A DNA stretch of 64,000 bases, from positions 35,322,292-35,386,291 of the forward strand of contig OW121740.1 in assembly GCA_933228675.1 (NCBI GenBank), given 5' to 3'. The notes under the pieces are model-generated. The model made no database searches, had not been told where the DNA came from, and saw nothing but the letters and a program-made list of their open reading frames with translations. The stretch comes from Stomorhina lunata (lineage: Eukaryota > Arthropoda > Insecta > Diptera > Rhiniidae). Below, in pieces: positions 1-59,175 of the stretch; the stretch's first letter is position 1; every line of letters begins with the position of its first letter. The position numbers and the translations under genes were made by a program.

Positions 1-655
1 GAAATGTTCTACGAATTTTGCACATAGAGTCAAAGCTTATGCTGGACTGAAGACATATAAAGTCCAAAAGGTTCCAGATCGCAATGCTATAAAGAACTTA
101 GAAGCAAAAAAAAAAGAGCGAAAAAATTGAAGTCTGATTTTATAAAAACATACACCTGTTGTGTGATGGATGATGAAACATACGTACTGGCAGACTTTTC
201 TCAACTTCCTGGTCAAGATTTTTATGTTGCTGATAAACGGGGCAATGTTCGGCAAGAGTTTCGCACAAAAAAACAAACAAAATTCCCTAAGAAGTTTCTC
301 GTGTGGCAAGCTATTTACAGTTGTGGCAAAAGAAGTAAAGTATTTGTGGCATCTGGCACAATAAACACAGAAATTTATATAAAGGAGTGCCTACAAAAAC
401 GGTTGTTACACTTTTTAAGAGAGCACATAGTGACTACATTTTTGTGGCCCGATTTGGCATCATGCCATTATGGAAAAAAGGCACTTGAGTGGTACTCAAA
501 GAATAATGTCATTTTTGTACCACGAGAGGCAAATTCACCTAACTGTCCAGAACTTCGGCCTGTGGAAAGGTATTGGGCTCTGGTAAAAAAGGAATTGAAG
601 AACACAGGAAAGATTTCCAAGAACATTGTTGAATTAGTTTGTCGAAAGTAGCAAA
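1..655 (+). pseudogene. Tc1/mariner-superfamily transposase remnant (DD37E-like), cut by window start
   Basis: This is a DNA transposase fragment. The frame from 127 to 651 reads through a catalytic-domain pattern: MDDETYV near the start (first Asp), WPDLASCHYG (second Asp), then NCPELRPVERYW, whose Glu lies 37 residues after the second Asp. That spacing differs from the classical DD34E of Tc1. The upstream coding part (about 48-126, TYKVQKVPDRNAIKNLEAKK) is in another frame, broken at a poly-A run near 110-120. No ATG precedes the long frame, so it is an old copy and not a start of a gene. The N-terminal half and left terminal repeat are outside the window. I saw no right terminal repeat. 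It could be a different IS630/Tc1 branch; the transposase identity is firm, the subfamily is not. Confidence 0.75.
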
Positions 656-8084: not shown

Positions 8085-9565
8085 CCTGCAAAAACAAAAA
8101 AGTATAGACATTTTTTTCACTATAAAAACTTTTCTATAGAAAATTTTCTCATATTTTTTTGTAGAAAATAGCCCTGCAAAAACAAAAAAGTATAGAAAAT
8201 TTTTTCACTATAAAAACTTTTCTATAGAAAACTTTCTCATTACAAAAATTTTTTTTATAGAAAATTTTTGTAATAAAACATTTTTCTATAGAAAATTTTT
8301 TTATTAAAAAAAATTTTCTATAGAAAATTTTTTCATAATAAATTTTTCTATAGATAATTTTTTCATTATAAACATTTTTCTACAGAAAATTTTTTCAATA
8401 TAAAAATTTTTCTACAGAAAATTCTTTCATTATAAAATTTTTTCTATAGAAAATTTTTTAATTATGAAAATTTTTGTATAGAAAATTGTTTATGAAAATA
8501 ATGTTTTTTATTATAAAAACTGTAGTTTTGAGATTTTCTTAAAGGTTTTATGATTTACTAAAAGTATTAATCGGGTATGTGATAGAAATCGATCGATTTC
8601 GCATATTTTTGAGATAATTTGTCCCATTTTCACAAAAAAAATCAAACCACATTTTATAGTTACTATTTTCTATAGAAAATTTTTCATTATAAAAATTTCT
8701 CTATAGAAAATTTTTCATTGTAGATTTTTCTAGAAAATTTTTTATTATAAAAATTTTTTTATAGAAAATTTTTTATTATAAAAATTTTTCTATAGAAAAT
8801 TTTTTTATAAAAATTTTTCTATAGAAAATTTTTTATTATAAAAATTTTTCTATAAAAAATTTTTTATTATAAAAATTTTTCTATAGAAAATTTTTTATTA
8901 TAAAAATTTTTCTATATAAAAATTTTTATTATAAAAATTTTTCTATATAAAAATTTTTCTATATAAAAATTTTTCTATTGAAAATTTTTTCATTATAAAA
9001 GTTTTGCCACAGAAAATTTTTTCATTATAAAAATTTTTCTATAGAAATTATTTTAATTATGAAAATTTTTCTATAGAAGTTTTTTTTATCATAAAATTTT
9101 TTCTATAGAAAATTTTGTTATACAAATTTTTCTATAAGACAAATTTTTCTCTAAAAAATGTGTTCCTTATAAAATTTTATTTTTCTATAAAAAAAAATTT
9201 CATTATAAAATTGTATTTTTCTATAGAAAATTTTTTTCATTATAAAAATTTTCTATTAAAAATTTTTTCATTATAAAAATTTTCTATTAAAAATTTTTTC
9301 ATTATAAAAATTTTTCTATTGAAAATTTCTTCAATTTAAAAGATTTGCTACAGAAAATTTTTTCATTATAAAAACTTTTCTATAGAAAATTTTTTAATTA
9401 TGAAAATTTTTGTGTAGAAGTTTTTTTTTATCATTAAAATTTTTTTATAGAAAATTTTTCTATAATACAAATTTTTCTCTAAAAAATTGTTTCCTTATAA
9501 AATTTTATTTTTCTATAAAAAAAATTCATTATAAAATTTTATTTTTTTATTATAAACTTTTCTGT
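8085..9565. repeat. AT-rich satellite, about 30-32 bp unit (CTATAGAAAA type)
   Basis: A tandem array of variants of TTTTTCTATAGAAAATTTTTT followed by CATTATAAAAA. The TTTTCTATAGAAAA core is palindromic. The array also has a near-perfect local duplication of AATAGCCCTGCAAAAACAAA at about 8079 and 8168. Units differ by point changes and small indels, so the array is not young. A half MITE-1 interrupts it near 8572-8650. Confidence 0.85.
8572..8650. repeat. MITE-1 half copy inside satellite
   Basis: GGTATGTGATAGAAATCGATCGATTTC followed by TTTTTGAGATAATTT matches one arm of the elements at 2743 and 16246. The second arm is missing. Its presence inside the array means the satellite existed before this insertion or expanded around it. 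Confidence 0.6.
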
Positions 9566-9982
9566 AGAAAATATTTAAATTAACTCTGATATCCTTGGAA
9601 CTACGATATGAATGATGAATCAGACAACTTTTCATTTTCATTGCATTTATGAATGAATTTATTTGTCTTCTTATATCATGCATTTGCTTGCAAGTATGAA
9701 AATACTTGTCTCATGGAACAACTTAATAACCAATGTCAATGCCTTCTTCAATTGCTGTTCATTCAAGGTAACATCACTTAAATGTATACCTACAATTTTT
9801 GAAACGTCTGTAAAGAGATTTTGTTAACAAAACGATAGACATTTTATGAAAGTGATAGGAAATGTGCAATACTTAAAAGTATGAATGCAGTGTATTTCCT
9901 ACACCATTTACAATGTATTGAACTATAATCCTTAAAAATATTTCAGTTCTATAAAAAAATATACAAAATTGTCGGGATAGTA

Positions 9983-10290
9983 AATATTTATTCAAAAGAA
10001 AAATTATTCGCATTTTATCCTAGTCTACTGCATTTATTTATTAATGTAATAGATAATTTATTGATAAAAGCCAAAAAAATAAAATATTTAATAATGCGAG
10101 ATTTTTGCTCTGTCTAAAAGTAAAGATACTTCTCCTGTAGATGATGGCCTAACCAACCATAGAAACGGTCGAGATATTGGTTGTCTCCACAAACATTCGT
10201 TGGCTTTAACAATAAATTGTCTATTACATTGATAAATAAATGTAATATACTGGGATTAAGTGCAAATAATTTTTCTTTTGAATAAATATT
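9983..10290. mobile_element. MITE-F, long inverted-repeat element
   Basis: The left arm starts AATATTTATTCAAAAGAAAA and continues for about 75 bp (CATTTATTTATTAATGTAAT). The right arm is its reverse complement with a few mismatches, ending TTTTGAATAAATATT at 10290. The middle carries GGCCTAACCAACCATAGAAAC. The right-hand half recurs at 15117-15240. No coding capacity. Confidence 0.65.
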
Positions 10291-10734
10291 CCTTCCTGTT
10301 CTTTAATAATTATATTAGCCCAGTTCAATCCGTTGCAAATAGTCTAATATCTAATATTTGTAGATCTAATATTTGCAATGGTGTAACTTAGACCTCATAA
10401 AAAACTACTGCATGATGAATATCTTGGACAAATGTTCTATTGTTCTTTCCGTCTTTATTGTTTTTTCCATTGACCCTTTTACAAGTACATACATATCATA
10501 TATTTATCAATATTTAAAAATCTTCTTCAAAACCTTATGCCTTAGATATGCAGAAAAATATGAAAACTAAAACTATAAACAATTTTCTAGTTGCTCTTTT
10601 AAACCATTTTCCACCATAGACAAAAAAAATCCTAAACACCAAAAGAGCATATTTATAAAGACCCCAGATTAGTTCTCTAGCAACGGTCATTTGAAACACA
10701 ACGATAACATTCATAATTTTAAGTATTCGATATT

Positions 10735-11071
10735 ATGTCACTCCAATTAACAATTGATAAACTTAAGGGCTTAGACAATTACAAGGCCTGGTCAATGACA
10801 GTGCGAGCCTATCTGGAAGTCGAAGATTTGTGGAGTGTTGTCGAAACGGGCCCGGATGGTAGTGAAGAAGTTGGTTTTTTTGTTCAAAATATCTTTAAGA
10901 TTTTGTTTTACTTTCTATATTTCTCATCGATTTTAGAGTCTTCAAAAAGATAAACGTGCAAAATTTATAATTTTGTGTTTAATTGAGCAGAAATTGTGTC
11001 AATTTATGGTCAGCATACGCACAGCTAAGGATCTATGGGCCTATTTGAAGAAACAACATTCCCTGCGGTGA
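10735..11071 (+). CDS. Gag-like mini-gene A (Copia-type Gag N-terminal domain), 89 aa
   Basis: Two exons, 10735-10869 (exactly 45 codons) and 10937-11071, with a 67-nt phase-0 intron ending TTTTAG. The donor reads GTTGGT, weaker than in its relatives. The protein begins MSLQLTIDKLKGLDNYKAWS, then VRAYLEVEDLWSVV; exon 2 reads KDKRAKFIILCLIEQKL and later AKDLWAYLKKQH. The pattern (K-L-x-G-x-NY-x-W, YL-x-x-LW-x-V, K-x-x-A-x-x-I-x-L-x-L, A-x-x-W-x-x-L) is that of the N-terminal region of Copia-type Gag polyproteins. No zinc knuckle, protease or integrase follows, and no LTR flanks it. It is the first of three tandem genes with identical exon-1 length. Function unknown; a domesticated capsid-like protein is an inference. 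Confidence 0.7.
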
Positions 11072-11079
11072 ATTTTTTT

Positions 11080-12000
11080 AATTATTATGTTTTATTTTTT
11101 TTATAGATGATTAATTAACTAAATAAAATCTAATGTTTTATTAAAAATATTTTAAAAATTAGTTTTTATTATGAAACAAAGTGTAAGGTTTAAAATGGGT
11201 TCATTGATATTATCAGTAAAATATTTTAGTAAAATTGAAGTCGGCCGATTGATTAGATTAAGTTTGAAAAGTGGTACCAAATGGCACCTTGGAAGCCCTT
11301 GGGTTTAAAATGATAAATTATAGAAAGAAAAAAGTAATCATATTAATACTTTTGAAGGTAGCGCTATCTAGAAAAGTAATGGCTTATTTAAACCATCTGA
11401 GTCCAGTTATAAAACAATTTTTCACTGCTGTATGTCGCGAAGTTCATTATGGCATCTATTATCTAAATGTGTAAGCCTCTGATTCTGGAGCATCGGACAG
11501 TGACAGAGGATGTGCTCCAAACACAGTCGGAAAAAGTCCGAAATGCTCCCATACCACCTGTTTAGTCTAGAGTTTAGGGCATAGTGGCCTGAGGGGTAAC
11601 TATGTAACTCGAATCGAAAATAAATTTGTTCGAATTTGTATGCTTAAACAATTTCGAAAATATTTTCTTTCGAAACGAGGTACGGAGTAATCCTCCTTTT
11701 AGTATGCCTACTCATCTTCCTAAATTTATCCTATTAAGACCAAGAAGAGTTTTGGTTCCGCCTTTATTCGGCTTAGACCATAAAGCCCTAGATGTTTCGC
11801 TGCAGATCCGAGACTTGATGTCCATAAAAAAAGTGACAGATAGGGAAGCTATGTCTGTTACTTTTTGGCACAAATTTCGGATTCGTCAGCAAATTCGTTG
11901 CCTTCGATGTCGCAAAGACCCGAAACCCATTACAGTTTAATCCTATATCTGAGTGATAAATAGTTCTATTAGGGCCAATACTGGCGCTGAAAGGCCTCAA
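11080..12000. other. No gene seen; degraded retroelement DNA
   Basis: AT-rich to 11470, then a less AT-rich part (GGAGCATCGGACAGTGACAG, 11488-11507) of the type found in decayed LINE sequence. A frame at 11626-11940 is open but has no recognisable domain and no ATG context, so I do not call it. Lies between mini-genes A and B. Confidence 0.35.
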
Positions 12001-12004
12001 ATTC

Positions 12005-12225
12005 AGCCTCTATATCGGCATATATAGTCACCTTAAATAATCAATTTTCGAAAAACTTCCAACTAGTCAATTTTCGAAAAAGTTATTATAAAAAGTAAAT
12101 TTTCGAAAGATTTCCTATAAATAGTCAATTTTCGAAAAATTTCCTATAAATATTCAATTTTTGAAAAATTTTCATAAAATTGACTATTTTCGAAAAATTT
12201 CCTATAAATAGAAAATTGACTTAAT
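12005..12225. repeat. Short tandem array, about 30-bp unit (TCAATTTTCGAAAAATTTCC)
   Basis: About six to seven units of ATAAATAGTCAATTTTCGAA followed by AAATTTCCT, with variation. The GAAAAATTTCCTATAAA part is shared with the large satellite at 33090-36140, so both may come from one satellite family. Confidence 0.7.
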
Positions 12226-12546
12226 AGTCAGACCATGGTAAGCCCGACTCCAAGACATGGGGATCCATAAAGCTCAGTAATCTGGTGTGAGTTGATAATT
12301 CTCTTGGTTAGATTTTCTTGGTCGTCCTTACAGGAGATGTGTTTAAGTTTTTGGTAAAATTTACGCATTTTATTTTGGTTCTACACATCTTAACTTCCTC
12401 ATATACACGGGATGTAACACTTAGTTGCATGACGCTAAAGCGTGTCTGAAATATATAGGCACTTTGAGATGTCTCAGAAACGGCACTCCGTGATATAAAT
12501 TTCTGTGTTTATCTTAGCCGATGCCTTTTTTTTGCCGTAAATATAA

Positions 12547-12762
12547 TTGTCTTCGCGAAATCTTCCTAATCATGATCTCGTTCATCGGCAACATCAAAAC
12601 CTTGACCCGAAAGTTGTCAAAAGACTGCTATTACATACGATTCACAATCAAATAAAGAACTTTTTAAAGCACCCTCGTTGCCTTCTGATTTCTTTGATAT
12701 TTTCCATATTTTTCATCATTTTACTACTTGTTGTCATGATTTTAATGGTTTCTTTTAGTTGA
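12547..12762 (+). other. Possible small membrane-protein exon, unproven
   Basis: An open frame of about 70 codons ends in a strongly hydrophobic run (LLISLIFSIFFIILLLVVMI) preceded by basic residues (KNFLKHPR), the shape of a single-pass tail-anchored protein. There is no ATG at its start (the frame opens at TTG), so if real it would be a last exon with an upstream part not found. It lies 65 bp before mini-gene B. AT-rich DNA readily makes hydrophobic frames (TTT, ATT), so the odds are against it. Confidence 0.2.
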
Positions 12763-12826
12763 TATTTCCAACGAATAACAATAAGTTTATAATTTTCTTT
12801 TGTTTAATTTAAATTGTTAAAGAAAA

Positions 12827-13163
12827 ATGTCCCTTATAATTAAAATTGACAAATTGAGGGGACGAGAAAATTACAATGGTTGGTCGAAAAAGGTGCGTTT
12901 GTATTTGATATCGGAAGGTCTATGGACTTCGGTATCGTCCATAAATTCTCTAAACGAAAGGGTAATTAAAAGTTCAAAATTTGGATGTAAAAATTAAAGA
13001 TTTATTAAAGTTTTTTTTGTTATAGAAAAATAAACGTGTTAAATTTATACTTTTGTGCTTAATTGATTATGGATTATTTGAATTTATTGAACCGGATGCA
13101 ACACCACACACAATTTGGACAACATTGCAAAAGCAATGCAGTGAAACGGAAGCAACGAAATAG
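12827..13163 (+). CDS. Gag-like mini-gene B, 90 aa
   Basis: Two exons, 12827-12961 (45 codons) and 13026-13163, with a 64-nt phase-0 intron bounded by GTAATT and TTATAG. The product starts MSLIIKIDKLRGRENYNGWS, continues VRLYLISEGLWTSV, and exon 2 reads KNKRVKFILLCLIDYGLFEF then PHTIWTTLQKQC. It aligns without gaps in exon 1 to genes A and C and shares the splice position. The ATG context is AGAAAAATGT. It carries only the first part of a Copia-type Gag, about 90 residues compared with several hundred in the parental polyprotein, and stops before any zinc knuckle. The open frame across an intact intron argues for selection. No function can be assigned. Confidence 0.75.
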
Positions 13164-13372
13164 GAATTAATTTAGAATTGAAATAAAATTTAAGAAATTA
13201 TAATATTTAAAAACAAAAAATCTTTAAAATGTCTGCAATTGAAGGAACTAATAAGAGGTTACAAAGATTTAATCTGACCTGTTTTAATGGCACTTTCTTT
13301 TGAGTATCAAATCTAAAAAATCAATCAATTCTTTTATCACTTGAAATTTTTTTATACTATACGAAATTATAT

Positions 13373-13417
13373 ACGAAAGATAGGGGAGAATGAAATGTAT
13401 TCTCCCCTATCTTTCGT
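13373..13417. other. Perfect 19-bp inverted repeat, 7-nt loop
   Basis: ACGAAAGATAGGGGAGAAT, loop GAAATGT, then the exact complement. It lies between mini-genes B and C, 100 bp before the ATG of C. The stem is GC-richer than its surroundings. It is too short for a usual fly pre-miRNA, and could be an RNA hairpin in a 3' or 5' UTR or the relic of a foldback insertion. Confidence 0.8.
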
Positions 13418-13520
13418 GTTCTATTCAGGTCTTTTGCATTTTGCTTTAACTCTTGCATTTCTTTTTAAAAACGTCATTACATCTAACAGACCAACCTAAT
13501 AGACAAGAAATCTTAATAAA

Positions 13521-13840
13521 ATGTCTTTTGATTTTCAAATCGACACTTTAAAGGGACGACAAAATTATAATGAATGGTCCAGAAAGTTGAGATATTATCT
13601 AGTAGCTGAAGGTTTATGGCAAATAGTGCGTACTGCCAGTTCATCGGATGTAGCGGTAATAAAGTTTTTAAACAAATAATAATTACTTAAAACATTAAAT
13701 CATTTTAGAAAATTAAACGTACAAGATACATAATAATTTGTTCAATTGAAGACGATATACTGGAATCGATTGACGCCGATGCAATGCCTAATGTCATTTG
13801 GACAAGCGTACAAAAAAAGTGCACTTCACAAGCAACATGA
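13521..13840 (+). CDS. Gag-like mini-gene C, 88 aa
   Basis: Two exons, 13521-13655 (45 codons) and 13709-13840, with a 53-nt phase-0 intron (GTAATA...TTTTAG). The product starts MSFDFQIDTLKGRQNYNEWS, then LRYYLVAEGLWQIV; exon 2 reads KIKRTRYIIICSIEDDILES and PNVIWTSVQKKC. It is closest to B (shared KGR-NYN-WS, EGLW, IWT-x-x-QK-C). It is convergent with Rpb4, whose stop codon lies 134 bp away. Three copies with the same exon lengths, intron phase and spacing mean duplication at the DNA level after the intron was present. The Copia-type Gag origin is by motif pattern only. Confidence 0.75.
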
Positions 13841-13889
13841 AATGTAATTGATAACTTCTGAGTATTTGTTCTACAAATTTCTTTAATTA

Positions 13890-13895
13890 TTTATT
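13890..13895 (-). promoter_or_regulatory. Probable polyadenylation signal of Rpb4
   Basis: AATAAA on the minus strand, 80 nt after the Rpb4 stop codon, leaving about 50 bp to the stop of mini-gene C. Confidence 0.45.
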
Positions 13896-13974
13896 TTTAA
13901 AAAAATGTCAAATCGTCAATCGTTTTGTGGGTTAATTGTTGTAAAAAAATGTTATAATTTAAACTTAATAGAAA

Positions 13975-18912
<4,938 letters not shown>

Positions 18913-26486: not shown

Positions 26487-27100
26487 GTATCTTTTGTGTT
26501 AATTTTTTATTCCCGGTACCTTGCGCCAAAATCCTCCCCAAATTAATCAGTATTAGTAAATGTTGTCGCTAAGGATTTTCAGGTTGTTGTTTCTATGGAC
26601 GGATAACGATTCACTTTTCCGTAAGGGTCATCTATAATTGAGATCTATTGCGGAATAAGTTAAATAGGAGTGGCGACAGAATTCCGCCCTATAAGAAGCT
26701 TTAAATATTGTTCTCTAAACTCCACGAATGACTTGAGATCACACAGATAATTAAGGATATAGCACTAAAAAAACATTATATGCTAGATGTCTTCTTTTGT
26801 GTTAATTTTTTGTTCCCGGTACCTTGCGTCATAATCCTCCCCGAATTAATCAGTATTAGTAAATGTTGTCGCTAAGGATTTTTCAGGTTGTTGTTTCTAT
26901 GGACGGATAACGATTCACTTTTCCGTAAGGGTCATCTGTATTGAGATCTATTGCGGTAGAAGTTAAATAGGAGTGGCGACAGAATTCCACCATATGCGAA
27001 GTTTTAAATATTGTTCTCTAAACTCCACGAATTTCTTGGGATCACGCAAATAATTAAGGATATAGCACCAAAAAAAAAAAACATTATATGCTAGATGTCT
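26487..27100. repeat. Tandem duplication, about 306-bp unit
   Basis: The segment starting CTTTTGTGTTAATTTTTTATTCC, running through TCAGTATTAGTAAATGTTGT, ATGGACGGATAACGATTCAC and CTCCACGAAT to TATGCTAGATGTCTT, is present twice in a row at about 95 percent identity by eye. Each unit has the look of decayed LINE sequence (GATAACGATTCACTTTTCCG also resembles a spot near 6680). Confidence 0.7.
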
Positions 27101-49728: not shown

Positions 49729-51032
49729 ATGGGTGTTTTTTTTAGAGGTATAGAACTTCGAATTGAAATAAAACACAAGAAAATCGTTTTAATGTCCATC
49801 AATTTGGCTTTATTGGAAGGATAATTTTATGCCATTAATGTTTAAATATGATTTCGGGCATGTGGCCGCCACGGCTGGCTCGAATAAAGCCAATTCTACA
49901 GGTCCAATTTCCAACTACTTTTTCGAGCATATGGGGCCGTATGTTGGCAATAACGCCACGAATGTTGGCTTCCAAGTCCCCTAACGTTTCTGGTTTGTTG
50001 GCGTAGACGAGCGACTTCACATATCCCCAAAGAAAATAATCCAGTAGTGTCAAATCGCACGATCTTGGTGGCCAATTGACAGGTCCATTCCGCGAAATTA
50101 TGCGCTCATCGAATGTTTCCTTCAATAAATCAATTGTGACGTGCGCTGTGTGGCATGTAGCGCCGTCTTGTTGGAACCACAACTCATCCACATTCATGCC
50201 ATCCAATTGGGGAACAAAATAGTCGGTTATCATGGCTCTATACCGGTCTCCATTTATGGTAACTGACTCTCCAGCATTATTTCGGAAGAAGTATGGCCCA
50301 ATGACTCCACCAGCCCATAGAGCACACCAAACAGTCAGTTTTTGTGGATGTAATGGCGTCTCAAGGGTCTCATGTGGATTCTCTTCACTCCAAATGCGGC
50401 AATTTTGCTTGTTGACGTAGCCATTCAACCAAAAATGAGCCTCATCACTGAACAAAATTTTGCGATGAAAATCAGCATCGAGATCAATCTCATTTTCGGC
50501 CCATACACCAAAATCACGACGCATTGCATGATCTCGCGGCTTTAATTCTTGCACAAGCTGGATCTTGTAAGGTCGCAAGCCAAGATCTTTGCGCAAAATC
50601 TTCCATAAAGTTGATGGACAAAGCTCCAATTGCTGTGCACGGTGGCGAATCGATTCATTCGGGTCCTCTTCAACACTTTGCTCTACAGCGGCAATTGTTT
50701 CTTCGGTGCGCACTGTTTGACGTCGCTGCGGATGCGAATTATCACATAGAGTAAACGTAGTGCGAAAACGATCCATGGTTAACCGAATTAATTGCTCTGA
50801 TGGACGATTATGTCGACCATAAAATGGACGGAGCTTGCGGTAAACTTCGCGAACTGAACCATTATTTTCGAAATAAATTTGCACGATTTGCAAGCGTTGT
50901 TCTTTTGTCAACCTGTTCATGATGAAATGGCAAACCAAACTAAATATTAATCACTTGACAGCTGACAAAATGGCCGCCAGTTAAAAAAGTGATGCCAACT
51001 TAAAGTTCTATACCTCAATAAAAAACACCCGA
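49729..51032 (-). mobile_element. Mariner-type transposon, copy 1 (1304 bp)
   Basis: The ends are inverted repeats: GGGTGTTTTTTTTAGAGGTA at the left and, read inward, GGGTGTTTTTTATTGAGGTA at the right, both continuing TAGAACTT. TA flanks both sides (49727-49728, 51033-51034). It encodes one transposase. An 18-bp-shorter sister lies at 57890-59175 in the same orientation. Confidence 0.9.
49835..50938 (-). CDS. Mariner-type transposase, copy 1, 367 aa
   Basis: Cuts and pastes its own element at TA sites. The frame is open from ATG to stop. N-terminal helix-turn-helix region: TKEQRLQIVQIYFENNGSVR, then a second region around SIRHRAQQLELCPSTLWKIL. Catalytic domain: D165 in ILFSDEAHFWLNG, D258 in LWFQQDGATCH, D295 in PPRSCDLTLLDYFLWG, with 36 residues between the last two, unlike the DD34D of Mos1. 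One residue in that last motif differs from copy 2 (LTLLDY here, LTPLDY there), so this copy may be impaired. The start may be the internal ATG at MNRLTKEQR, 6 residues in. Confidence 0.9.
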   Translation of the reverse strand: MVCHFIMNRLTKEQRLQIVQIYFENNGSVREVYRKLRPFYGRHNRPSEQLIRLTMDRFRTTFTLCDNSHPQRRQTVRTEETIAAVEQSVEEDPNESIRHRAQQLELCPSTLWKILRKDLGLRPYKIQLVQELKPRDHAMRRDFGVWAENEIDLDADFHRKILFSDEAHFWLNGYVNKQNCRIWSEENPHETLETPLHPQKLTVWCALWAGGVIGPYFFRNNAGESVTINGDRYRAMITDYFVPQLDGMNVDELWFQQDGATCHTAHVTIDLLKETFDERIISRNGPVNWPPRSCDLTLLDYFLWGYVKSLVYANKPETLGDLEANIRGVIANIRPHMLEKVVGNWTCRIGFIRASRGGHMPEIIFKH

Positions 51033-54076: not shown

Positions 54077-55335
54077 CGAGGGCGGTTCGGAAACTTCTTA
54101 GCCTACCAATGAAAGAGAATAGTTAGTTTTTCAAAAATATTTTTATTTTTCAATATAGTCTCCTGAAACTTCAATACACTTAGTTCAACGCTTTTCTAGC
54201 AATTCTCAAGGTCTTCAAAACAGTGGTTTACAGCTGTAATTGCATCTTCATTTGGGGTAAAACGCTTGCCAGCAAGGAATTTTTTAAGATTTGGGAACAG
54301 GTAAAAGTCACTGGGAGCTAAATCAGGAGAATAAGGTGGGTGGTCAAGCAACTCGTTCTTTAATTCGTTGATTTTAGCCATCGTTAAAACACTCTTGTGC
54401 GCTGGTGCGTTATCTTGATGAAAAATTATTTTTTTGTGTTGTAAGCCAGGACGTTTTTCTCGAATTTGTACATTTAATTGATCCGAAAGGTTGCAATAAT
54501 ACTCTTAATTTATTGTTTTACCCTTTTGCAGATAGTCAATCAATAAAATACCTTTGAAGTCCCAAAAAACCGTTGCCATAACCTTACCAGCCGATTGAAT
54601 TGCTTTTGCCTTCTTTGGGGCACTTCCTCCAGCTTCAGTCTATTGTTTTGTCTCTGGAGTATAGTGGTGGATCCATGTCTCATCAAAAGTTATAAAACGA
54701 CGCTTAAAATCCATTTTATTTCGCTTAAAACGATCCAAACAAGCTTGAGAAATGTTCATTCTTATGCGTTTTTGGTCGACTGTTAACAAATGCGGCACCC
54801 ATCTTGCAGAAAGCTTTTTTATCTGTAGTTCTTCATGCAAAATGAAATGGACTCGATCATTTGAGATGCCCATGATATTAGCTATTTCACGCACTTTTAT
54901 TCGTCGATCATTTAACACCATATCATGCACTTTGGCTACAATTTCTGTTGTAGTTGCAGTTTTTGGACGTCCACTACGTGGTTCATCTTTAATGCTTGTA
55001 CGTCCACGTTTAAATTCAGCAACCTAATTTTTTACTGTTGCATATGAAGGAGCACTTTCACCTAACACATTTACCATATCATTATGAATTTCTTGTCCCG
55101 ATAAACCTTTTTTATGTAAATATTTAATGACACCACGTATTTCTAATTTTTCCATTGTAAAAAAAATAGCGGGTGCGTCTTTTGTGAACACCTGTTTCTA
55201 TATGAAGGAGTTACCAGATCGAAACAAAATTTAACATGTGTTTAAAGCAGAGATGGAAGTTTCTAAAACACTTAACTTTTTTCTGTTTGTACCACGCTTT
55301 TTGTGCTAGGCTAAGGAGTTTCCGAACCGCCCTCG
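54077..55335 (-). mobile_element. Irritans-like mariner, decayed (1259 bp)
   Basis: Terminal repeats CGAGGGCGGTTCGGAAACTT at the left and CGAGGGCGGTTCGGAAACTC at the right read inward, both continuing with a CTTAGCCTA. TA duplicated on both sides (54075-54076, 55336-55337). The internal gene is dead. Confidence 0.9.
54143..55155 (-). pseudogene. Mariner transposase pseudogene
   Basis: From an ATG at 55155 the frame reads KLEIRGVIKYLHKKGLSGQE, FKRGRTSIKDEPRSGRPKTA, MHDMVLNDRRIKVREIANIM, FITFDETWIHHYTPETKQ (first Asp), then later MAKINELKNELLDHPPYSPD with the third Asp. In-frame stops interrupt it; three of them fall where mariner has Trp (after VKN, after ETKQ and in EKR-TKC near the end), all explained by G-to-A change of TGG. 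A frameshift lies near the C-terminus. Closest in style to the irritans subfamily (HHYTPE motif). Confidence 0.85.
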
Positions 55336-57891: not shown

Positions 57892-59175
57892 GGGTGTTTT
57901 TTTTAGAGGTATAGAACTTCGAATTGAAATAAAACACAAGAAAATCGTTTTAATGTCCATCAATTTGGCTTTATTGGAAGGATAATTTTATGCCATTAAT
58001 GTTTAAATATGATTTCGGGCATGTGGCCGCCGTGGCTGGCTCGAATAAAGCCAATTCTACAGGTCCAATTTTCAACTACTTTTTCGAGCATATGGGGCCG
58101 TATGTTGGCAATAACGCCACGAATGTTGGTTTCTGGTTTGTTGGCGTAGACGAGCGACTTCACATATCCGCAAAAAAAATAATCCAGTGGTGTCAAATCG
58201 CACGATCTTGGTGGACAATTGACAGGTCCATTCCGCGAAATTATGCGCTCATCGAATGTTTCCTTCAATAAATCAATTGTGACGAGCGCTGTGTGGCATG
58301 TAGCGCCGTCTTGTTGGAACCACAACTCATCCACATTCATGCCATCCAATTGGGGAACAAAATAGTCGGTTATCATGGTTCCATACCAGTCACCATTTAT
58401 GGTAACTGACTCTCCAGCATTATTTCGGAAGAAGTATGGCCCAATGACTCCACCAGCCCATAGAGCACACCAAACAGTCAGTTTTTGTGGATGTAATGGC
58501 GTCTCAAGGGTCTCATGTGGATTCTCTTCACTCCAAATGCGGCAATTTTGCTTGTTGACGTAGCCATTCAACCAAAAATGAGCCTCATCACTGAACAAAA
58601 TTTTGCGATGAAAATCAGCATCGAGATCAATCTCATTTTCGGCCCATACACCAAAATCACGACGCATTGCATGGTCTCGCGGCTTTAATTCTTGCACAAG
58701 CTGGATCTTGAAAGGTCGCAAGACAAGATCTTTGCGCAAAATCTTCCATAAAGTTGATGGACAAAGCTCCAATTGCTGTGCACGGTGGCGAATCGATTTA
58801 TTCGGGTCCTCTTCAACACTTTGCTCTACAGCGGCAATTGTTTCTTCGGTGCGCACTGTTCGACGTCGCTGCAGATGCGTATTATCACATAGAGTAAACG
58901 TAGTGCGAAAACGATCCATGGTTAACCGAATTAATTGCTCTGATGGACGATTATGTCGACCATAAAATGGACGGAGCTTGCGGTAAACTTCGCGAACTGA
59001 ACCATTATTTTCGAAATAAATTTGCACGATTTGCAAGCGTTGTTCTTTTGTCAACCTGTTCATGATGAAATGGCAAACCAAACTAAATATTAATCACTTG
59101 ACAGCTGACAAAATGGCCGCCAGTTAAAAAAGTGATGCCAACTTAAAGTTCTATACCTCAATAAAAAACACCCGA
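57890..59175 (-). mobile_element. Mariner-type transposon, copy 2 (1286 bp)
   Basis: The same terminal repeats as copy 1 and almost the same sequence, with one 18-bp deletion. Flanked by TA within a (TA)n tract, which gives many possible target sites. Confidence 0.9.
57996..59081 (-). CDS. Mariner-type transposase, copy 2, 361 aa
   Basis: Open from ATG to stop. The same domains as copy 1, with about 15 amino-acid differences by eye and an in-frame loss of six residues after KPET (GDLEAN region of copy 1). The first two catalytic motifs are intact (FSDEAHFW, QQDGATCH). The third reads RSCDLTPLDYFFCGYVK, with Phe-Cys where copy 1 has Leu-Trp, so activity is doubtful. Neither copy has a stop or frameshift. 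Confidence 0.88.
   Translation of the reverse strand: MVCHFIMNRLTKEQRLQIVQIYFENNGSVREVYRKLRPFYGRHNRPSEQLIRLTMDRFRTTFTLCDNTHLQRRRTVRTEETIAAVEQSVEEDPNKSIRHRAQQLELCPSTLWKILRKDLVLRPFKIQLVQELKPRDHAMRRDFGVWAENEIDLDADFHRKILFSDEAHFWLNGYVNKQNCRIWSEENPHETLETPLHPQKLTVWCALWAGGVIGPYFFRNNAGESVTINGDWYGTMITDYFVPQLDGMNVDELWFQQDGATCHTALVTIDLLKETFDERIISRNGPVNCPPRSCDLTPLDYFFCGYVKSLVYANKPETNIRGVIANIRPHMLEKVVENWTCRIGFIRASHGGHMPEIIFKH

What the first reader, a model, noticed from the sequence alone, without database searches (positions are those of the whole stretch)
10735..13840. Three tandem, spliced Copia-Gag-like mini-genes beside Rpb4
Three small genes (89, 90, 88 aa) in the same orientation each have a first exon of exactly 45 codons, a phase-0 intron of 53-67 nt at the same place, and a second exon of 132-138 nt. 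All read like the N-terminal domain of Copia-type Gag (NYxxWS, YLxxExLW, KxKRxxxIxxCxI, xxWxxxxKxC) and all stop before any zinc knuckle. No LTR, protease, RT or integrase is near. Equal exon length with diverged sequence suggests duplication followed by selection to keep the frame. This looks like a small domesticated capsid-derived family, possibly acting as restriction or assembly factors; that last step is inference. The splice donor of gene A (GTTGGT) is weak.
Basis: partly seen in the sequence, partly recalled or inferred. Interest (0 to 1): 0.9.

Follow-up and report, generated by a model that had tools for sequence, protein, structure and literature searches.

The report
Fly genes from Copia capsid half
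Three small neighbouring fly genes each encode only the first half of the shell protein of the jumping gene Copia, and relatives in several other flies, fruit flies included, suggest that flies took this piece over long ago for a job that is still unknown.

Summary
Three same-strand, two-exon genes (89, 90, 88 aa) lie at 10735-13840; each has a 45-codon first exon, a short phase-0 intron and a stop at nearly the same alignment point. They derive from Copia Gag: Pfam matches A and C above cut-off (B below), and the only PDB sequence matches are Copia capsid chains (weak, E 0.37 and 0.7). Predicted folds of an A and a B orthologue align to Copia capsid residues 3-90 and 3-93: one N-terminal lobe, without C-terminal lobe or zinc knuckle. 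Orthologues occur in Drosophila, Eurosta, Teleopsis, Glossina, Musca, Stomoxys, Calliphora, Lucilia and Sarcophaga. Codon 46 is GTN, the intron donor, in 23 of 24 intron read-through records. In one tree the mini-genes form one side of a branch (99/96) against 13 Copia Gags of the same genome, where 58 of 149 matches lie in open frames of 1,200 aa or more. No Copia sequence behind the lobe was found in the window. This is best read as one old domestication followed by duplication. Function is unproven; the nearest working model is mammalian RTL8, an N-lobe-only protein that enters PEG10 particles and lowers their number. Expression and binding were not tested.

The parts
10735..10869 (+). gene A, exon 1 (45 codons)
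   Evidence: Pfam DUF4219 2e-8 and Retrotran_gag_2 2.1e-7 on the spliced protein
10870..10936 (+). gene A, phase-0 intron, 67 nt, weak donor GTTGGT
   Evidence: same junction in Calliphora and Drosophila proteins
10937..11071 (+). gene A, exon 2 with stop
   Evidence: 100% match in own genome
10654..10660 (+). TATA-like box upstream of A (pattern match only)
12827..12961 (+). gene B, exon 1 (45 codons)
   Evidence: Sarcophaga and Lucilia relatives 90% identical
12962..13025 (+). gene B, phase-0 intron, 64 nt
13026..13163 (+). gene B, exon 2 with stop
13521..13655 (+). gene C, exon 1 (45 codons)
   Evidence: Pfam DUF4219 1.2e-8
13656..13708 (+). gene C, phase-0 intron, 53 nt
13709..13840 (+). 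gene C, exon 2 with stop
   Evidence: 77% identical to the C-like part of Lucilia P0001 over 77 columns
13975..14208 (-). neighbour, not part of the family: last coding stretch of Rpb4 (convergent; its stop is 134 bases from the stop of C)
   Evidence: Pfam RNA_pol_Rpb4 6.9e-15 on 13978-14208

Best explanation
A, B and C are host genes made from one old capture of the start of a Copia-type gag gene. Each encodes a free-standing capsid N-terminal lobe of about 90 residues: it starts where Copia Gag starts and stops near the point where Gag goes on into the C-terminal lobe. After capture the gene probably gained an intron at codon 45/46 and duplicated. Supported by results here: homology, fold (of orthologues), intron conservation, common origin in the tree, conservation beyond a simple neutral expectation. 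Most likely way of working (inferred, not shown): the lobe keeps the lobe-lobe contact surface used inside capsomers but lacks the C-terminal lobe and the RNA-binding tail, so it binds full-length Gag, of Copia or of another capsid-like protein, and caps or spoils its assembly, as RTL8 does with PEG10. A, highly conserved, would serve a fixed partner; B and C, which look less conserved in the few records at hand, are the better candidates for acting on mobile Copia. Confidence in domestication alone is about 0.93; the figure below is for domestication plus this mechanism.
Confidence: 0.4

Rival explanations
1. Domesticated lobe with a purely cellular job: the small helical domain binds a conserved host protein as an adaptor, and no capsid, Copia or other, is involved any more.
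For: A is very conserved from Drosophila to Calliphora (81-96% to window A for P0004, P0006, P0007). No member has the lobe or tail needed for assembly. A mammalian survey says a full-length capsid is not needed for the host function of some domesticated genes (PMC11011659, passage).
Against: No partner is known. The whole lobe and its ends are kept, which would also fit capsid contact. C looks less conserved (77% to Lucilia).
Confidence: 0.42
2. Scaffold: the lobes form rings or small assemblies of their own (N-lobe rosettes without a shell) and work as an oligomer.
For: Copia N-lobes form the central spokes of capsomers (PMC11835246, section 9); the fold is kept.
Against: Copia capsid formation needs RNA and the NC part (same section), which these proteins lack; RTL8 alone forms no particles (PMC11684626, abstract passage). 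No oligomer could be modelled here.
Confidence: 0.1
3. Decayed Copia pieces without function, split by chance into open frames.
For: Copia copies are common in this genome, and many are short or broken.
Against: Same intron place in other flies, orthologues of the same length, no LTR-like pair, nothing behind the lobe in the window, 0 of 2000 simulated neutral copies at 80% identity for each of the divergences 0.2 to 0.5 (591 of 2000 at 0.1).
Confidence: 0.02

Closest known systems
RTL8A/B/C (mammalian, with LDOC1 and RTL6 other truncated-capsid genes)
   Same: Short host proteins (RTL8 113 aa) with a truncated capsid domain homologous to the N-lobe and no zinc finger; three paralogues (PMC11684626, passages; PMC11011659, passages).
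   Different: RTL8 comes from a Ty3-type (Metaviridae) element, its three copies are over 92% alike, and its binding to PEG10 was shown; here the source is Copia-type (Pseudoviridae), the copies are 34-47% alike, the genes carry a coding intron, and no binding is known.
Yeast Ty1 p22/p18 and DRT2
   Same: Pieces of Pseudoviridae capsid, DRT2 domesticated, that act against the same element (PMC8458377, passages; PMC10951436, abstract).
   Different: They hold the C-terminal capsid lobe; the fly proteins match the N-terminal lobe.
Copia Gag of Drosophila and of this genome
   Same: Pfam families, fold of residues 3-90, start of the frame.
   Different: No C-lobe, no zinc knuckle, no protease or integrase, an intron at codon 45/46, fixed place in flies.
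dArc1
   Different: Metaviridae origin, full capsid, forms shells (PMC11011659, passage; PMC11835246, section 9).

Membership tests
Derived from Copia-type Gag | matches Pfam Copia Gag families above cut-off | tested here: met
   A (DUF4219, Retrotran_gag_2) and C (DUF4219) above; B below, 21.3 of 27 bits
Derived from Copia-type Gag | Copia capsid N-lobe fold | tested here: met
   models of P0004 and P0003, Copia first in both lists; C not modelled
Copia retrotransposon (as a member) | C-terminal capsid lobe, zinc knuckle, protease, integrase behind the N-lobe | tested here: not met
   the part behind residue 110 of ten Copia frames: best window match E 0.71, far away; reverse transcriptase not itself tested
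Copia retrotransposon (as a member) | flanking LTRs | tested here: not met
   no LTR-like direct pair in 9500-15500 at 40 nt or in 1-30000 at 100 nt; only tandem arrays and one 137-nt pair at 26637-27076
Domesticated host gene | orthologues kept in other species with the same structure | tested here: met
Domesticated host gene | codon-level purifying selection between species | not testable with these tools
   no DNA of orthologues; paralogue NG86 only: A-B 0.52/2.46, B-C 0.42/1.50, A-C saturated
Domesticated host gene | transcription and splicing | not testable with these tools
   no reads held; spliced gene models of other species and one contiguous spliced record P0008 are suggestive only
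RTL8-like N-lobe inhibitor | capsid N-lobe only | tested here: met
RTL8-like N-lobe inhibitor | Metaviridae (Mart/SIRH) origin | tested here: not met
   Copia families and folds instead; so works-like at most, not a member
RTL8-like N-lobe inhibitor | binds a full capsid protein and lowers particles | not testable with these tools
   needs protein experiments
Ty1 p22/p18, DRT2 | capsid C-lobe | tested here: not met

The most novel reading that the evidence does not exclude
Flies independently arrived at the RTL8 strategy: a Copia capsid N-lobe, freed from the rest of Gag and kept in the sampled Schizophora, enters Copia or other capsid rosettes and caps them, with a slow copy (A) for a fixed host target and less conserved copies (B, C) against mobile Copia. 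The nine answered literature searches listed no paper on an N-lobe-only host gene family from Pseudoviridae.
Probability: 0.3. Interest if true: 0.87.

Novelty: new variant of a known kind. Interest (0 to 1): 0.7.

Why it matters
The domesticated capsid genes of animals that I know of (Arc, PNMA, RTL; partly recalled, partly PMC11011659 passages) come from Ty3-type elements. A Copia-derived, N-lobe-only family with relatives in Drosophila would show that the bare lobe was taken over more than once, from two families of elements. It puts the question of what a capsid lobe does without a capsid into a genetic model in which Copia itself forms particles and transfers between cells (PMC11835246, abstract passage). 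Removing the Drosophila gene would be a direct test.

Tried and rejected
Rejected or empty. (1) Decayed element: see rivals. (2) More mini-genes in the genome: queries B, A and C gave 121, 149 and 33 rows (6, 5 and 5 of them the window's own exons); outside the window no row is above 45% identity. Of the short-frame places I fetched 29, not all: 25 of 29 carry Copia sequence behind the lobe at E 1e-3 or better. L035, L038, L056 and L063 did not; by eye L035 and L056 still show such text, L063 has a stop inside the lobe, L038 lacks part of it. (3) Another splice of A from the GT at 10858: would need an acceptor without pyrimidine tract; the orthologue junction argues against it. (4) DNA relatives: 52 and 31 pattern matches in genome contigs and viral contigs, none confirmed. 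(5) The third protein search added no new record. (6) Rfam: 0 matches in the window. (7) The bacterial promoter scan does not apply to a fly; only its hairpin is noted. (8) Not done: neighbours of the orthologues in other genomes, the D. melanogaster orthologue by name, site-wise selection tests, modelling of C.

Weak points. The tree uses 13 Copia rows picked from more than 100 and leaves out P0008, P0032, P0033 and partial rows; its root is a midpoint; the tool warned of long Copia branches. In the tree 3 of 13 inner branches are starred. The nearest Copia family differs by gene (A and C: L009; B: L014 and L003 tied, at 27-31% identity), so the donor lineage is unknown. In one search, of six LWL85 and YN00 estimates four gave a math domain error, one a division by zero, one a value (B-C 0.37/1.29).

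Full report
What is there. The window lies in a genome of 728 Mb in 104 contigs. By protein identity (A 96% to Calliphora; B 90% to Sarcophaga and to Lucilia) it is probably a fly near blowflies and flesh flies; the species is not known. On the + strand three genes follow each other: A 10735-11071, B 12827-13163, C 13521-13840. Each has a first exon of exactly 45 codons, a phase-0 intron (67, 64, 53 nt) and a second exon of 135, 138 or 132 nt, giving 89, 90 and 88 aa. C ends 134 bases from the stop of Rpb4, which runs on the other strand. Upstream is a mitochondrial ribosomal gene (Pfam MRP-L28); beyond Rpb4 lie Ada2-type and cap-methyltransferase-type exons. Coding G+C is 34-40%, intron G+C 13-22%; a TATA-like match lies at 10654; A and B have polyadenylation-type matches within 300 bases after the stop, C has none.

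One lobe and no more. Aligned with Gag starts of Copia copies of the same genome, the mini-proteins begin at or within a few residues of the Gag start and end near the D-S-G-L-T-R-R-type segment with which Copia Gag goes on. The part behind residue 110 of ten Copia frames (rest of Gag and what follows, up to 591 residues in all) has no match in the window better than E 0.71, and that one is far from the genes; with the whole pieces as queries the mini-gene exons are the only matches below E 0.1. No LTR-like direct repeat pair was found. Copia Gags of the genome match across the junction in one frame, so the intron was probably gained after capture (inference).

Age and conservation. Three protein searches gave relatives named from Drosophila (P0006, a cluster of 31 sequences; P0007; P0013), Glossina (two), Musca autumnalis (two), Stomoxys, Calliphora, Lucilia, Sarcophaga, Eurosta and Teleopsis. 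Eurosta and Teleopsis are Schizophora by look-up; the others by general knowledge. No named record outside that group appeared, but these searches reach only relatives that share short words and are of like length. Of 24 records that read on past exon 1, 23 have GTN as codon 46 (exception P0024). Window A is 83% identical to D. persimilis. In a simple simulation 0 of 2000 neutral copies kept 80% identity at nucleotide divergence 0.2, 0.3, 0.4 or 0.5, but 591 of 2000 at 0.1; that neutral divergence between these fly families exceeds 0.2 is general knowledge. Between paralogues NG86 gives dN/dS 0.52/2.46 (A-B) and 0.42/1.50 (B-C); A-C is saturated, and five of six further estimates failed, so these are rough.

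Family history. With 14 mini-proteins and 13 Copia Gag starts of this genome the mini-proteins lie on one side of a branch, support 99/96, in 98% of 200 bootstrap trees. Within them an A-type group (86/82) and a B/C-type group (97/89) separate, and C pairs with the Lucilia C-like piece (100/96). P0001 of Lucilia is a gene model that begins as B exon 1 and ends as C, which suggests the two lie side by side there too (read by eye). Named B/C-type records came only from Lucilia and Sarcophaga; whether they arose there or were lost elsewhere is open. Whether A lies beside Rpb4 in other flies is untested.

Possible targets. Query A gave 149 rows in the own genome; by hand count 58 of 149 lie in open frames of 1,200 aa or more, and five rows are the window's exons (the tool says counts are lower bounds). 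So this genome holds many Copia copies with long frames.

How it may work. Copia N-lobes form the spokes at the centre of capsomers and C-lobes the edges; the authors suspect that C-lobe contacts stabilise the capsid; Gag without NC does not assemble alone but co-assembles with whole Gag (PMC11835246, section 9 read). RTL8 in mammals resembles the N-lobe, binds the PEG10 N-lobe, is found in its particles and lowers their number (PMC11684626, passages). Yeast DRT2 and p22/p18 act with the C-lobe (PMC10951436, abstract; PMC8458377, passages); the latter paper raises the possibility of exapted CA-NTD factors. On this pattern the fly proteins would enter capsid rosettes and stop growth. Supported by results here: homology, fold, conservation, intron, common origin. 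Inferred: binding, inhibition, target. Against: A's slow change does not look like an arms race, so a fixed cellular partner is an equal rival.

Print. Nine answered searches of the open library listed no paper on this family by title or abstract; DUF4219 occurs in six papers, none of them on flies by title or abstract. A mammalian survey found no Pseudoviridae capsid sequences in the human genome and describes N-lobe-only genes from Ty3-type elements (PMC11011659, passages). Subscription papers and preprints are not held, so an earlier report is not excluded.

Verdict. Its function remains to be tested.

Noticed in passing
window 13372-13418, between B and C: A near-perfect 20-bp hairpin with a 7-base loop, unusual in this A+T-rich spacer; origin unknown.
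   Followed up: no
window 8191-9540: Long A+T-rich tandem array, about 16/31-32-bp units of the type TATAGAAAATTTTT.
   Followed up: no
window 9983-10290: Inverted repeat with 86-nt arms, 88% complementary, 136 nt apart, upstream of A; perhaps a foldback or MITE-like element.
   Followed up: no
window 12034-12211, between A and B: 29-bp tandem repeat, about six copies.
   Followed up: no
window 49835-50950 and 57996-59093, - strand: Two nearly identical transposase-like open frames (371 and 365 aa, Pfam DUF4817 at 5.7e-12 and 6.6e-12).
   Followed up: partly
window 61-651 (+) and 54196-55023 (-): Frames with weak DDE_3 matches below cut-off, probably remains of DNA transposons.
   Followed up: partly
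protein P0001 (Lucilia cuprina FF38_10770): Public gene model that appears to fuse B exon 1 with C; probably a misannotation.
   Followed up: partly
proteins P0009/P0033 (Glossina) and P0010/P0032 (Musca): Each species has two A-type copies whose records show the same longest-contig length, so separate A duplications are likely; the second copies have the longer branches in the tree.
   Followed up: partly
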